Positions 18,016 to 60,843 of a stretch of 64,000 bases of DNA are shown here, piece by piece. The notes beneath the pieces were generated by a model, which worked only from the letters and a program-made list of their open reading frames with translations, made no database searches and was not told the DNA's origin. The DNA lies in contig NZ_KE159707.1 in the NCBI RefSeq assembly GCF_000403435.2, positions 669,607 to 733,606 of the forward strand, written 5' to 3'. Both the position numbers and the translations under genes were made by a program. Position 1 is the stretch's first letter, and each line of letters starts with the position of its first letter. Source of the stretch: Oscillibacter sp. 1-3. Lineage in GTDB: Bacteria; Bacillota; Clostridia; Oscillospirales; Oscillospiraceae.

Positions 18016-18341
18016 CGGCTCTGCCGCTCCAGCTTCTGCTGGAGGCGGAAGACCTCTCGCTTCAGCTCGCTGACCTCGGACTGGGCCTGGGCGGCCTCGT
18101 CCGCATAGCCCTTGATCTGGCCCCGCAGCTGCTCCGCGGTCTCCTGGGACTTCATCAGCTCGTCGGCGATGTTGACGGCGGTGAGCACGGCGGCGTTGAC
18201 CCGGCCCACCTTGGCGGCGTCCATGGTCTCACGCATCTTTCCGTCTACATAGGAGCCCACCCGCTGGATGTAGGAGGGGGATTCCTCCGCCACAAGGGTA
18301 TAATCATCGCCGCAGATATTTACGACCACCCGGTTTGCCAT
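18012..18341 (-). CDS. zapA: ZapA cell-division protein
   Basis: Small FtsZ-ring bundling protein. ATG 18341 (MANRVVVNICGDDYTLVAEE) has GGAGG 8 bases upstream, giving 109 residues: a globular head (about 1-50, with SYIQRVGSYVDGKMRE) and a C-terminal coiled coil (about 70-109). The open frame extends 8 codons upstream without a ribosome site. It is the first gene of a zapA-U32 pair transcribed from a promoter at about 18400. Confidence 0.9.
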   Translation of the reverse strand: MANRVVVNICGDDYTLVAEESPSYIQRVGSYVDGKMRETMDAAKVGRVNAAVLTAVNIADELMKSQETAEQLRGQIKGYADEAAQAQSEVSELKREVFRLQQKLERQSR

Positions 18342-18399
18342 GAGACATTCCTCCTCTTTCTTCACACATGGAGCGGGTCATGTCAATTTTACAGCGTAC

Positions 18400-18428
18400 A
18401 GTATAGCACATGAGCTGGCCTTATGCCA
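18400..18428 (-). promoter_or_regulatory. Candidate promoter for zapA
   Basis: On the minus strand TATACT (18400-18405) is preceded by TGC (extended -10), with TGGCAT 17 bp upstream. It faces away from the giant palindrome. Confidence 0.5.
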
Positions 18429-18533
18429 GAAAAAATGGTGATTTTTCCAAAAAATTCACAAAAATTCCGGGAGGAGTCGCGCCATGGGGGCGGTACGGGG
18501 GGTATACCGCACTTCGGGCGGGGGAGGTTTTTT

Positions 18534-18675
18534 CTCGCCCTGACGGGCGGGGTGGATTTCAGCCATGATGATGGCTGGGCAATGCACCCCCCATTTTCTC
18601 TTTTTCTGCGCGCAGAAAAAGAGAAAACGGGCCGTGCACGGTCCAAAAGAGAAAAAGACGCTGGGGCGGAATTTG
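18534..18675 (+). repeat. Left 142-bp arm of the giant palindrome
   Basis: Begins CTCGCCCTGACGGGCGG and ends GGCGGAATTTG. It contains a CAGCCAT/ATGGCTG hairpin, a 34-bp perfect palindrome (18594-18627) built from TTTTCTCTTTTTC and its complement around GCGCGC, and a GGCCGTGCACGG palindrome. Letter-by-letter comparison with the right arm shows no mismatch. Confidence 0.88.
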
Positions 18676-19130
18676 GCCGCGAGGGCCAAATTCGCCCAAG
18701 ATACGGGGGCTGGCCTGAATCGGTGCTTTCGTAAATTGCCGGTCTTCTGCCGGCTGCGTCTAACTCTGTACCGTCCTTTGGCGCTCCGCCGCAGTCGGTA
18801 CTTTCTACGAGGTTGTTTTGCTTCTTTGACGCAAGGCTCCTAGCTTCTCTTCCCGCGCTTCGCGCCTGGCCTGTCCCGTTTGGACAGATCTCCTTCTACC
18901 GTCGGTAGACGAACTCTCTTCCCCGCACGTGCCCGACCAGGCGCGAAGCGCAGGAAGAGGCGCTGGAGGCCTTGCGTCTACGCACCAAAACAACCCCGTT
19001 GGCAGATGCAAATGCGGGGGAGCGCCCCCGCAAGGTACGCTGTCAAGCGCACCCGGCAGAAGACCGGCAAGATTTATGGGCACTAGTTCAGGCCAGCCCC
19101 CGTAATTTGGGTGAATTTGACCCCTGCGGT

Positions 19131-19272
19131 CAAATTCCGCCCCAGCGTCTTTTTCTCTTTTGGACCGTGCACGGCCCGTTTTCTCTTTTTCTGCGCGCAG
19201 AAAAAGAGAAAATGGGGGGTGCATTGCCCAGCCATCATCATGGCTGAAATCCACCCCGCCCGTCAGGGCGAG
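19131..19272 (-). repeat. Right 142-bp arm of the giant palindrome
   Basis: Exact reverse complement of 18534-18675, ending GTCAGGGCGAG. It is followed by three GC-rich hairpin modules (19279-19345) of the dispersed family. Confidence 0.88.
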
Positions 19273-19469
19273 TAAAACCCACTCCCGCCCGAAGGGCGGT
19301 CTCCCCCGTCCCCGGCCCGAGGCCGGATTTCCCCGTCCCGCGCCCGAGGCGCGAAATCCTCCTTCCCTGCGGGGACCCCCGAGAGAAAACCCCCGGTCAG
19401 GGCTTGCCCTTCCAGGAAATTTCGTGTAGAATAGGAGGACAAAAACCGCGCAGAGGGGAGGGACAGGCC

Positions 19470-20351
19470 ATGTCCAGCGTATTGGTGGAGACCGGAGACG
19501 AGGGCGTCACCCTCACCGGCCAGGCGGTCAGGCGGCTGCTGGACCGGGGCGACGGAGACGCGGCCCTGCTCTACCTGGCCCTCCTGCGCCGCCGGGGCGC
19601 CGTTCCGCCCCGGTCCCTGGCGGGGGAGCTGCGGTGGGACAGGTCCCGCATTGAGGCGGCGGAGGACGTGCTGCGCCAGCTGGGCTTCATCGCCCAGGCG
19701 GACCCGCCCCCGGAGCCGGCGGAGGAAAAGCCGGCCTACCGGCAGACGGACATCGCCGACCGGCTGGAGGGCAGCGCCGAGTTCCGCAGCCTCACCGCCG
19801 AGGTGGAGCGGAAGCTGGGCAAGAAGCTCACCGCCCCGGACGTGGGGGTCCTGCTGGGGCTGAACGACTACCTGGGGCTGCCCGCCGACGTGATCTACCT
19901 GCTGGTGTGCCACTGCGCGGAGCGGGTGCAGCGGCGGTACGGCCCGGGCCGCCGCCCCGGGATGAAGCAGATCGAGCGGGAGGGCTACGCCTGGGCCCGG
20001 ATGGGCATTGACAGCCAGGGAGCGGCGGCGGAGTACCTGAAAAACTACGCCCGGCGGCAGGAGCGCGTGCCGCAGTACATGCGGGTCCTGGGCCTGGGGG
20101 AGCGGATGCCGGCGGCGTCGGAGGAGAAGTACCTCACCGCCTGGCAGGAGATGGGCTTCCCGCCGGAGACGGTGGCCCTGGCCTACGACAAGACGGTGCT
20201 CAAGTGCCACGAATTGAAGTGGCCCTACTTAAACGGCATTTTGAAGCGGTGGCACGAGGCGGGTCTCCACACCCCGGAGGAGGTGGAGGCAGGCGACGGC
20301 GGCAGGAAGCCGAAGACCACCGGCGGACGGGGGGCCTGGGAGTACGTCTGA
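19470..20351 (+). CDS. DnaD-domain replication-initiation-like protein
   Basis: The 293-residue protein has an N-terminal winged-helix-like segment (about 15-75, YLALLRRRGAVPPRSLAGEL ... VLRQLGFI) and a C-terminal DnaD/DnaB_2 domain ending in YLNGILKRWHEAGLHTPEEV, the family's YxxxILxxWxxxGxxT signature. ATG 19470 is chosen because GGGGAGGG lies about 9 bases upstream; the 22 earlier codons overlap the repeat region. It precedes an AAA+ helicase-loader-like gene by 35 bases, so together they probably load the replicative helicase, as DnaB/DnaD with DnaI do in Bacillus. Such pairs also occur in prophages, but no phage genes are near. Confidence 0.85.
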   Translation: MSSVLVETGDEGVTLTGQAVRRLLDRGDGDAALLYLALLRRRGAVPPRSLAGELRWDRSRIEAAEDVLRQLGFIAQADPPPEPAEEKPAYRQTDIADRLEGSAEFRSLTAEVERKLGKKLTAPDVGVLLGLNDYLGLPADVIYLLVCHCAERVQRRYGPGRRPGMKQIEREGYAWARMGIDSQGAAAEYLKNYARRQERVPQYMRVLGLGERMPAASEEKYLTAWQEMGFPPETVALAYDKTVLKCHELKWPYLNGILKRWHEAGLHTPEEVEAGDGGRKPKTTGGRGAWEYV

Positions 20352-26892: not shown

Positions 26893-27108
26893 ATGTACCA
26901 GCGGATACGGGATATGCGGGAGGACCGGGACCTGCCCCAGCGGGCCCTGGCGGGGCTGCTCCACGTCTCCCAGGCCACTTACTCCCGGTATGAGAGCGGC
27001 GGGCTGGATGTGCCCAGCTCCGCCCTGATCGCACTGGCGATGTTTTACGGCACCAGCGTGGATTACCTGCTGGGGCTTACGGATGATCCTGCACCTTATC
27101 GAAGGTGA
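26893..27108 (+). CDS. Xre-family transcriptional regulator
   Basis: The 71-residue protein (ATG 26893, with GGGAGG about 8 bases upstream) is little more than an HTH_XRE domain: RIRDMREDRDLPQRALAGLL, then the recognition helix region VSQATYSRYESGG and YLLGLTDDP. It probably represses itself and the divergent small protein gene through the palindromes at 26811-26850. Genes for twin small proteins flank it on both sides. Similar stand-alone Xre proteins occur in toxin-antitoxin and prophage contexts, but no partner of that type is evident. Confidence 0.88.
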   Translation: MYQRIRDMREDRDLPQRALAGLLHVSQATYSRYESGGLDVPSSALIALAMFYGTSVDYLLGLTDDPAPYRR

Positions 27109-27138
27109 GGGGGGCTCCTGCGGAGGGGCGGAGGAGTT

Positions 27139-27212
27139 CGCGCCTCGGGCGCGGGACGGGGGGTGTACCGCCCTTCGGGCGGGGGAGGTTTTTTCTCCCC
27201 CGCCCGTTAGGG
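27139..27212 (-). repeat. Hairpin-module repeat, dispersed family, locus 2
   Basis: Contains the reverse complement of CCCGCGCCCGAGGCGCG (27139-27156), the CCGCCCTTCGGGCGG hairpin (27168-27182) and a variant end module, CCGCCCGTTAGGG. The order equals the flank of the giant palindrome. Confidence 0.75.
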
Positions 27213-27278
27213 CTGGTAAAAATCTTCCCCGGGGGACAGAGGCACAAAGAGAGGGACCGCTGCGCGGCCCCCTCTTTG

Positions 27279-46692: not shown

Positions 46693-46917
46693 ATGTTTGC
46701 TGAAAAAATACGAATGCTGCGAAACGAAAAAGGGATTAGTCAAACTGCTGTTGCGGCAGAAGCAGGCCTTTCCATGCGTGGATACCAAAATATAGAGTTG
46801 GGCTCTGAGCCCAGGTACAGCAGTATTTTCAAGATTGCAGAGTATTATGATGTCTCAGTGGACTGGCTCATGGGGCGGACCGAGGACCGGTATGCTCACC
46901 GGCGTAAGCCGGAGTAA
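46693..46917 (+). CDS. Xre-family regulator
   Basis: The 74-residue HTH_XRE protein (FAEKIRMLRNEKGISQTAVA, AEAGLSMRGYQNIELG, AEYYDVSVDWLMGRTEDR) has a lower GC content than its neighbours, which may point to recent acquisition. ATG 46693 follows AAGGGGTAAATT. The divergent spacer contains CGATTATGTAT, close to the CGATTATCGTAT operator half at 26811. It ends exactly where a repeat of the hairpin-module family begins. Confidence 0.88.
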   Translation: MFAEKIRMLRNEKGISQTAVAAEAGLSMRGYQNIELGSEPRYSSIFKIAEYYDVSVDWLMGRTEDRYAHRRKPE

Positions 46918-46920
46918 GTG

Positions 46921-47047
46921 CTCGCCCTGACGGGCGGGGTGCATTGCCCAGCCATCATCATGGCTGAAATCCCCCCGCCCGTCAGGGCGAGTAAAAACCA
47001 CCTCCGCCCGAAGGGCGGTACACCCCCCGTCCCGTGCCCGAGGCGCG
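46921..47047 (+). repeat. Hairpin-module repeat, dispersed family, locus 3 (mini-palindrome)
   Basis: CTCGCCCTGACGGGCGGGG (46921-46939) and its exact inverse (46973-46991) flank a 33-base core containing CAGCCATCATCATGGCTG, also present in the giant palindrome. CCGCCCGAAGGGCGG and a GTGCCCGAGGCGCG hairpin follow. The repeat fills the Xre-mnmG spacer. Confidence 0.8.
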
Positions 47048-47091
47048 AAATCCCCGGTCTCCCTGCCAGGGAGACCGTTCAAGGAGCACCT

Positions 47092-53677: not shown

Positions 53678-53701
53678 GAGATTGACCAGAGAAAAGTAAA
53701 C

Positions 53702-53769
53702 AGCTCATATAATTTCGCTGTGATGGCGCGAAAGTTTCTACCGGGCCGCCCAAGGCTCTGCTATGAGTG
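53702..53769 (+). promoter_or_regulatory. Guanine-class purine riboswitch aptamer
   Basis: P1 is CTCATA/TATGAG; ATATAAT, a GTGATGG-type L2 loop, the invariant AAGTTTCTACC junction and GCTATGAGTG follow in order. The base before TATG in J3/1 is C, so guanine/hypoxanthine and not adenine is expected. Confidence 0.88.
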
Positions 53770-53782
53770 TCTTTCCGCAGGG

Positions 53783-53812
53783 GGCGCCCTGCCGGAGAGG
53801 CGCTTTTCTTTC
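53783..53812 (+). terminator. Riboswitch expression-platform terminator
   Basis: GGCGCC (53783-53788) can pair with GGCGC (53799-53803), followed by TTTTCTTTCT, 14 bases after the aptamer. Confidence 0.7.
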
Positions 53813-60700: not shown

Positions 60701-60772
60701 CTCGCCCTGACGGGCGGTCCCCCCCGTCCCCGGGCCGCGGCCGGATTCCCCCGTCCCGCGCCCGAGGCGCGA
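60701..60772 (+). repeat. Hairpin-module repeat, dispersed family, locus 4
   Basis: CTCGCCCTGACGGGCGG (60701-60717), then a CCGGGCCGCGGCCGG hairpin and CCCGCGCCCGAGGCGCG. It lies within the hisD-hisC spacer, inside the his operon, so it is transcribed. Confidence 0.8.
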
Positions 60773-60843
60773 AAGCCCCCGTCCCGCTCCGTGGGACGGT
60801 TCCAAAGGAATAAGCCCCCATATTTATAAAGAGGTGTTTCAAC

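What the first reader, a model, noticed from the sequence alone, without database searches (positions are those of the whole stretch)
18491..19345. Giant intergenic palindrome with 142-bp perfect arms
Between divergent zapA and the DnaD-like gene lies a near-symmetrical inverted repeat centred at 18902. Arms 18534-18675 and 19131-19272 are identical over 142 bp; inner parts match with scattered differences. Each arm holds a 34-bp perfect palindrome. There is no transposase or plausible ORF. Identical outer arms but diverged inner arms imply gene conversion, constraint, or recent copying of the outer parts. It could be a non-autonomous mobile element, a huge structured RNA, or a chromosome-organising site. 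It sits where gene polarity changes.
Basis: seen in the sequence. Interest (0 to 1): 0.75.

Follow-up and report, generated by a model that had tools for sequence, protein, structure and literature searches.

The report
Paired triple-helix repeats flanking gene cassettes
The giant palindrome is one copy of a scattered bacterial DNA element whose two ends each carry the signature of a three-stranded fold, and longer copies hold a small gene pair between those ends.

Summary
The palindrome is real (142 bp identical arms). It is a gene-less copy of a dispersed element: 30 model hits at 20 loci in this genome, hits in 42 of 250 genomes of its family (18 at E 1e-8 or better), no Rfam family. Each arm, read outward, is pyrimidine tract, mini-hairpin, pyrimidine tract, loop, purine tract, G-tract, loop partner. 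The first tract follows the purine strand in PARALLEL (perfect in 41 of 56 informative forms; antiparallel in 3), the signature of an intrastrand triple helix; the mini-hairpin loop covaries with a downstream partner (16 of 19). Neighbouring arms are outward-facing pairs in 43 of 44 cases. All seven pairs over 790 bp apart enclose a small DNA-binding regulator gene, six with a divergent partner ORF. Identical outer arms reflect homogenisation across this genome; the two inner halves are distinct types copied together. No mover was found; a RAYT is not needed. RNA or single-stranded DNA as the folding molecule is open. Intrastrand triplex repeats are known in bacteria (Holder 2015); this family and architecture appear new.

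The parts
18499..19307 (.). whole palindromic element (two outward-facing arms plus centre), the part covered by the near-symmetrical inverted repeat
18549..18664 (-). left arm: match to structure model R1, 124.1 bits
19142..19257 (+). right arm: match to structure model R1, 124.1 bits
19148..19161 (+). right arm Y1, proposed third strand
19162..19178 (+). right arm 17-nt spacer mini-hairpin; loop strand K = 19168-19172
19179..19192 (+). right arm Y2, Watson-Crick pyrimidine strand
19199..19212 (+). right arm R, purine strand
19219..19223 (+). right arm K', covarying partner of the mini-hairpin loop
19230..19245 (+). right outer hairpin AGCCAT-CATC-ATGGCT
19114..19136 (+). right arm variable hairpin upstream of Y1
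18645..18658 (-). left arm Y1, proposed third strand
18628..18644 (-). left arm spacer mini-hairpin
18614..18627 (-). left arm Y2
18594..18607 (-). left arm R, purine strand
18583..18587 (-). left arm K'
18561..18576 (-). left outer hairpin
18670..18692 (-). left arm variable hairpin
18676..18880 (-). inner half, left type (90.2% to the right half of the element at C5:562 kb, 76.8% to the other half here)
18927..19131 (+). inner half, right type (90.1% to the left half of the element at C5:562 kb)
19284..19365 (+). array of three short GC-rich hairpin units outside the right arm
   Evidence: family D2
19404..19432 (+). presumed native promoter of the DnaB_2 gene (TTGCCC, 17 nt, TAGAAT), by eye; similar stretch at the same place in relatives without the element

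Best explanation
The palindrome is a gene-less copy of a dispersed element that spreads, and is homogenised, as a whole unit. SHOWN (at sequence level): its two arms face outward; each carries on the outward strand a single-strand fold kept by covariation: a hairpin (Y2/R), a pyrimidine strand (Y1) that matches R in parallel as a triple helix of up to 16 triplets would need, and a 17-nt mini-hairpin whose loop pairs with a strand just past R. SHOWN: longer relatives carry between the arms a small regulator gene, mostly with a divergent small partner ORF (DUF6809 type in some), both reading out through the arms. INFERRED: the window copy lost, or never carried, these genes; copies move or are converted with enzymes supplied in trans; the arms act as folded-strand caps of the unit. 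Of the levels at which the fold could act I rate RNA (protecting or insulating the 3' ends of the two outward transcripts, as the MALAT1-type triple helix does) about 0.5, single-stranded DNA recognised as element ends about 0.35, and double-stranded H-DNA alone about 0.15.
For: Family: 78 blastn matches in this genome; 30 model hits at 20 loci; 42 of 250 family genomes, 18 of them at E 1e-8 or better. Triplex: 150 of 176 model hits aligned, 116 parsed, 58 unique, 56 informative; parallel match perfect in 41 (antiparallel in 3), better than antiparallel in 49, worse in 2, tied in 5; spacer exactly 17 nt in 46. Adjacent G's are rare in R (2 seen, 13.1 expected, lowest of 5000 shuffles 4; 29 distinct R), as a pyrimidine-motif triplex would favour. 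Pairs: 14 of 24 with changes on both sides, 99 such cells against 21.0 shuffled. Loop pairing in 16 of 19 unique combinations, shuffled mean 4.8, most 12. Architecture: 43 of 44 neighbouring arm pairs divergent, 1 tandem, none convergent. Cassette: all 7 pairs with a gap over 790 bp hold a small regulator ORF, HTH_3 in six and RHH_3 in one, all above the Pfam cut-off; 10 of 20 own loci have an HTH_3 gene within 1 kb, 5.1% expected, p = 1.4e-8. Whole-unit copying: inner halves match the opposite halves of another element at 90% but each other at 76.8%. Homogenisation: mean arm identity 0.654 within a genome between loci, 0.530 upstream of mutS between genomes, 0.525 otherwise. Presence/absence: at zapA-DnaB_2 the model finds arms in 3 of 30 loci, gap 1128 bp here against 211-429 in 22 of 24 readable others; at miaB-mutS 1420 bp here against 56, 72 and 40 bp in three species.
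Against: No transposase or other mobilising enzyme was identified, and no consistent target duplication was seen by eye. The measure 'further standard pair types' does not exceed shuffles (194 of 500 reach it). G-U pairs do not exceed A-C mismatches (8 against 15 in Y2/R hairpins, loop-near positions included; 11 against 9 in the variable hairpins), which speaks against a purely RNA-level constraint. The homogenisation signal is uneven: G000 0.771 and G006 0.690, but G071 0.606, G008 0.563, G053 0.555, G074 0.539; of 12 mutS-side arms with other copies in their genome, 8 are closest to a copy elsewhere in that genome and 4 to the same locus of another genome. In many genomes the regulator pair lies outside the left arm and some loci have one without the other, so the cassette may be a neighbour and not cargo. 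Arms recur upstream of mutS in many species, which also fits old vertical inheritance. The 51 arms of the first alignment were picked with a pattern that asked for a pyrimidine tract before the spacer. Sequences are related, so counts are not independent. No expression data.
Confidence: 0.6

Rival explanations
1. A stationary structured non-coding RNA or regulatory RNA, inherited vertically and kept alike by gene conversion; not a mobile element.
For: Covarying fold with a loop pairing; pair 37-74 is G-U in 41, A-U in 8, G-C in 1 and U-A in 1 of 51; arms upstream of mutS in many species.
Against: Presence differs among close relatives; presumed native promoters lie outside the element (by eye), so it is not a leader of the flanking genes here; arms come in pairs, often around or beside regulator genes; no G-U excess.
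Confidence: 0.15
2. A DNA-level barrier: H-DNA or cruciform that stalls replication or transcription and insulates neighbours, with spread as a by-product of instability (as proposed for intrastrand triplex repeats in Enterobacteria).
For: Y1/Y2 is a homopyrimidine mirror repeat; variable stems are near-perfectly Watson-Crick with no strand bias; Holder 2015 links such motifs with instability.
Against: H-DNA needs neither the Y2/R inverted repeat on one strand nor the loop partner, and both covary; R is 76% A with isolated G, unlike the G-rich purine motif (preference recalled).
Confidence: 0.12
3. A giant REPIN/BIME moved by the genome's REP-associated Y1 transposase (RAYT).
For: One Y1_Tnp gene in this genome, best NCBIfam match REP_Tyr_transpos at 63 bits, below its cut-off of 80; REP-like hairpins lie inside or beside several copies.
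Against: 7 of 12 genomes with 10 or more model hits have no Y1_Tnp match, the same as 7 of 12 genomes without model hits: no association. The arms are far longer than REP hairpins.
Confidence: 0.06
4. Assembly artefact.
For: Two other copies in this assembly contain runs of N, and contigs of relatives end inside arms.
Against: The two inner halves differ by 23% and match another locus crosswise; a one-contig relative (G053) has the same architecture.
Confidence: 0.01

Closest known systems
Intrastrand triplex motifs, TM_ECO / PIT elements (Holder et al. 2015, PMC4666352; outline, passages and sections 15, 16, 18 seen)
   Same: Dispersed intergenic repeats in which one strand supplies all three strands of a triple helix; sometimes two copies in inverted arrangement, a type A with a type B; copy number differs strongly between close relatives.
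   Different: TM_ECO is a 37-nt G/C-rich purine motif.
MALAT1-type RNA triple helix (PMC11411715, passages seen; strand order partly recalled)
   Same: Pyrimidine Hoogsteen strand, helix, pyrimidine Watson-Crick strand, purine strand, with the Hoogsteen strand joined to a helix.
   Different: Bacterial, up to 16 triplets by sequence, purine strand not a 3' tail, RNA form not shown; a loop pairing is added.
ENE triple helix of the plant retrotransposon Evade (PMC12501189; start of abstract in a search listing only)
   Same: A triple helix in the transcript of a mobile element.
   Different: Uses the poly(A) tail; here all three strands are encoded and the RNA role is inferred.
MITEs / non-autonomous elements
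   Same: Dispersed, inverted terminal arms, no transposase.
   Different: Arms are long folded structures; no target duplication or partner transposase found.
REPIN / BIME with RAYT (PMC3116915, PMC8266576: search listing and start of abstract only)
   Same: Inverted pair of hairpin repeats, intergenic, lineage-specific copy number.
   Different: Far larger, no RAYT association.

Membership tests
MITE | terminal inverted repeats, no transposase inside | tested here: met
MITE | target site duplication | tested here: inconclusive
   flanks of 11 full pairs read by eye; one possible 5-bp repeat (L238), no clear one in the others
MITE | related autonomous element with transposase sharing the ends | tested here: not met
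   ORFs of the 7 long-gap pairs read by eye, no transposase-like one; no match of the 855 bp in phages or plasmids, no exact 24-mer in viral contigs; not exhaustive
REPIN/RAYT | RAYT present in carrier genomes | tested here: not met
   7 of 12 element-rich genomes have no Y1_Tnp match
Intrastrand triplex repeat (Holder class) | three co-linear strands on one strand that satisfy triplex pairing | tested here: met
   41 of 56 informative forms perfect
   spacer 17 nt in 46 of 56; their limits
Intrastrand triplex repeat (Holder class) | triplex formation measured (CD, NMR, footprint) | not testable with these tools
   no wet data
MALAT1-type RNA triple helix | strand order and parallel Hoogsteen strand | tested here: met
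   sequence level only
MALAT1-type RNA triple helix | is an RNA and blocks 3' decay | not testable with these tools
   no expression data; G-U excess absent
Rfam families | match at gathering score | tested here: not met
   whole window at gathering score: only a purine riboswitch elsewhere; relaxed scans of five relatives' loci and of 18340-19480: all below gathering, mostly microRNA models

The most novel reading that the evidence does not exclude
A new class of compact bacterial mobile cassette (divergent small regulator plus DUF6809-type gene) whose two ends are defined by an evolutionarily covarying, MALAT1-like RNA triple helix locked by a loop-loop contact, so that both transcripts of the cassette end in a three-stranded cap.
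Probability: 0.27. Interest if true: 0.9.

Novelty: new variant of a known kind. Interest (0 to 1): 0.7.

Why it matters
Mirror covariation in dozens of forms is evolutionary evidence that a bacterial nucleic acid uses a long pyrimidine-motif triple helix. Bacterial riboswitches hold short triple helices (search listing), and dispersed triplex repeats in bacteria were described from counts plus folding and footprinting of one G/C-rich motif. The family gives a ready set of natural variants for probing, links a fold to a compact gene cassette of unknown function, and offers a clear test of RNA against ssDNA.

Tried and rejected
Rfam at gathering score on the whole window and relaxed on five relatives' loci and on the locus: nothing credible. 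Phages, plasmids (855 bp, blastn) and viral contigs (exact 24-mer): no match. First genome contigs pattern, the 34-mer: no match; the 24-mer gave 15 loci whose titles say Oscillibacter or Oscillospiraceae; the organism of the window itself is not named anywhere. Orientation of arms relative to flanking genes by longest-ORF calling (39 same, 73 opposite) was too noisy in this GC-rich DNA and is not used; my early impression (note) that arms sit upstream of and co-oriented with housekeeping genes is therefore not claimed. From 70 unique cores a pattern kept 54, of which 51 went into alignment A1; L019, L020 and one arm of L080 were left out. A first triplex parser took the wrong register because the stem runs on past the purine tract; it was replaced, which dropped 34 of 150 hits (no hairpin by its rule); 26 of the 176 hits were not aligned (best 150 only). 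One search scored loop pairing on the four loop bases (28 of 50 unique); the register was then shifted by one base and sequences merged (16 of 19); 10 combinations without the ACCG-4-CGG pattern were left out of both scores, several of which pair by eye at a shifted place. Of the three exceptions two are single G-U wobbles on the outward strand. RAYT as mover: rejected. Model R1 outside the family: 11 of the 15 positive genomes among 197 of the order, all weak at about 22-27 bits, not claimed; some family hits are equally weak. DUF6809 passed its Pfam cut-off only for the L071 partner (29.6 against 27), was below it for L080, L072 and L066, and gave no match for the L140, L049, L050 and truncated L051 partners. 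One search failed because the script read only part of the files, and was rerun.

Full report
What is there. The region 18491-19345 holds a near-symmetrical palindrome as described: 142 bp identical arms, diverged inner parts, and a 34-bp perfect palindrome in each arm. Its RNA folding energy is 38 standard deviations below 20 shuffles. The neighbours are ZapA and a gene with DnaB_2 domains.

It is not alone. A blastn search of the same genome (4.47 Mb, 12 contigs) gives 78 matches. A covariance model R1 built from 51 arms finds 30 hits, which merge into 20 loci. In the taxonomic family 42 of 250 genomes and 23 of 72 genera have hits at E 0.001 or better; at E 1e-8 or better it is 18 genomes in 10 genera (recounted). 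In a draw of 197 genomes of the order 15 have hits, 4 in the family and 11 outside, the latter all weak. Nothing was found in phages, plasmids or viral contigs with the queries used, nor in Rfam. Named records carrying the outer 24-mer are Oscillibacter or Oscillospiraceae.

The arm carries a conserved three-strand pattern. Reading outward, each arm ends in Y1 (8-16 pyrimidines in most), a mini-hairpin of mostly 17 nt, Y2, a loop, R (purines), a base, a G-tract and K'. Y2 and R form a hairpin with many two-sided changes. Y1 is the mirror image of Y2, hence a parallel copy of the complement of R. Of 176 model hits in 91 sources the best 150 were aligned; 116 could be parsed, giving 58 unique and 56 informative forms; Y1 follows R in parallel perfectly in 41, against 3 in antiparallel; parallel is better in 49, worse in 2, tied in 5; the spacer is exactly 17 nt in 46. 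Copying errors at palindromes can create inverted repeats, but I know of none that would create mirror repeats in a fixed register, so selection for Hoogsteen pairing is the simplest reading (inference). Purine strands with a perfect third strand (29 distinct) are 76% A and rarely have adjacent G (2 seen, 13.1 expected), as expected if neighbouring protonated C-G-C triplets are costly (recalled). The mini-hairpin loop pairs with K': 16 of 19 unique combinations against 4.8 in shuffles, through GCAC/GTGC, GCGC/GCGC, CCAC/GTGG, GAAC/GTTC and CAGC/GCTG. Sequences are related, so counts are not independent events; but perfect forms come from several genera (loci among L150-L160 and L236-L242).

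Which strand and which molecule. The pyrimidine-motif composition points to the outward strand. Position pair 37-74 is G-U in 41 of 51, A-U in 8, G-C in 1, U-A in 1. Against RNA: G-U pairs do not exceed A-C mismatches elsewhere (8 against 15 and 11 against 9). I leave RNA against ssDNA open, with a slight lean to RNA because in the enclosed-cassette copies the genes read outward through the arms.

The palindrome is the standard form. Of 44 neighbouring arm pairs within 1.5 kb (identical ones removed, drawn from the aligned hits), 43 are divergent, 1 tandem (a split arm in L050), none convergent; the arrangement is the same in a one-contig relative, G053. Divergent gaps run from 215 to 1217 bp. 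All seven pairs with gaps over 790 bp enclose a small regulator ORF: HTH_3 above the Pfam cut-off in L034, L049, L051, L071, L072 and L080, and RHH_3 in L140. Six of the seven (not L034) also have a small partner ORF, truncated in L051, pointing the other way; DUF6809 matches three of these partners, one above its cut-off. In this genome 10 of 20 loci have an HTH_3 gene within 1 kb where 5.1% would be expected (93 such genes); the window copy has none. In several other species the regulator pair sits just outside the left arm instead.

Why outer arms are identical and inner arms are not. The 142-bp core is 99.3% identical (139 bp) to the left arm of the element at C5:666 kb and 97% to a single arm at C5:806 kb; so the identity is a feature of the family in this genome. 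The left inner half is 90.2% identical to the right half of the element at C5:562 kb, the right inner half 90.1% to its left half, while the two halves here are 76.8% alike. Hence whole palindromes with two distinct halves are copied, and no local inverted duplication is needed. Arms resemble others in the same genome (mean identity 0.654) more than arms upstream of mutS in other genomes (0.530), which are no closer than other between-genome pairs (0.525). The effect is strong in G000 (0.771) and G006 (0.690) and slight in G071, G008, G053 and G074 (0.539-0.606); 8 of 12 mutS-side arms are closest to a copy elsewhere in their own genome, 4 are not.

Presence and absence. Between zapA and the DnaB_2 gene the spacing is 1128 bp here; of 29 other loci 24 could be read: 22 have 211-429 bp, one 567 and one 1259 bp, the last two without a model hit. 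Model hits occur in 3 of 30 loci: here, and in G006 and G080, whose contigs end inside the arm at the same place; G068, about equally close, has none. The residual GC-rich hairpin stretch in G068 could be an old target or a scar. Between miaB and mutS this genome has 1420 bp with a cassette-bearing element, while G068, G080 and G054 have 56, 72 and 40 bp; model hits with E up to 0.01 fall in 14 of 28 fetched MutS loci, one of which (L244, G080) is only a marginal 18-bit match.

Mover. One Y1-type (RAYT-like) gene exists in this genome, but 7 of 12 element-rich genomes have no match to that family, the same as 7 of 12 genomes without model hits. No other mover was found; the search was limited.

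Comparison. Intrastrand triplex repeats are known in bacteria: Holder et al. 2015 (PMC4666352; outline, passages and sections 15, 16, 18) describe TM_ECO, a 37-nt G/C-rich purine motif, intergenic, sometimes in inverted pairs, linked to instability, not found associated with mobile elements. The strand order matches the MALAT1 triple helix (PMC11411715, passages; order partly recalled). Searches for earlier reports: triple helix with structured ncRNA and Oscillospiraceae, MALAT1/ENE with bacteria, Oscillibacter with inverted repeats, DUF6809 (no paper), mirror-repeat triplex, PIT elements, RAYT/REPIN, bacterial triple-helix RNA. No title or abstract start in these listings described this family; only PMC4666352 and PMC11411715 were opened, and subscription literature is largely outside the library.

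Verdict. A real, family-wide, structure-conserved element; new variant of a known kind (dispersed intrastrand-triplex repeats), with an unexpected architecture and gene association. The fold is well supported at sequence level; mobility, function and the folding molecule are inferred.

Noticed in passing
window 46936-47066 (after an HTH gene at 46708-46869): Outer modules of the element fused without the arms between them, directly after a regulator gene: probably a deletion remnant.
   Followed up: partly
window 27120-27216 and 60703-60796: Further fragments of the outer GC-rich hairpin module; the first follows an HTH gene at 26905-27069.
   Followed up: no
window 53685-53783: Purine riboswitch, 43.8 bits, the only Rfam match of the window.
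   Followed up: no
L084 1342-1863 (C1:264690): A RAYT-like gene whose reading frame contains two REP-like palindromes of the kind it might move.
   Followed up: partly
L053, L054, L062, L065, L117: A second arm subtype in which part of the purine strand is replaced by a structured segment before the G-tract; seen in more than one species.
   Followed up: no
L244-L271, upstream of mutS: The region looks like a hotspot: element, regulator cassette, both or neither in different species.
   Followed up: partly
L225 198-1174: Three small XRE-like genes in a row before one element.
   Followed up: no
L030, L081, L120, L125: In some loci one arm has the spacer type GG..CCCG and the other CC..GCGCA, recalling the type A plus type B pairing of TM_ECO.
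   Followed up: no
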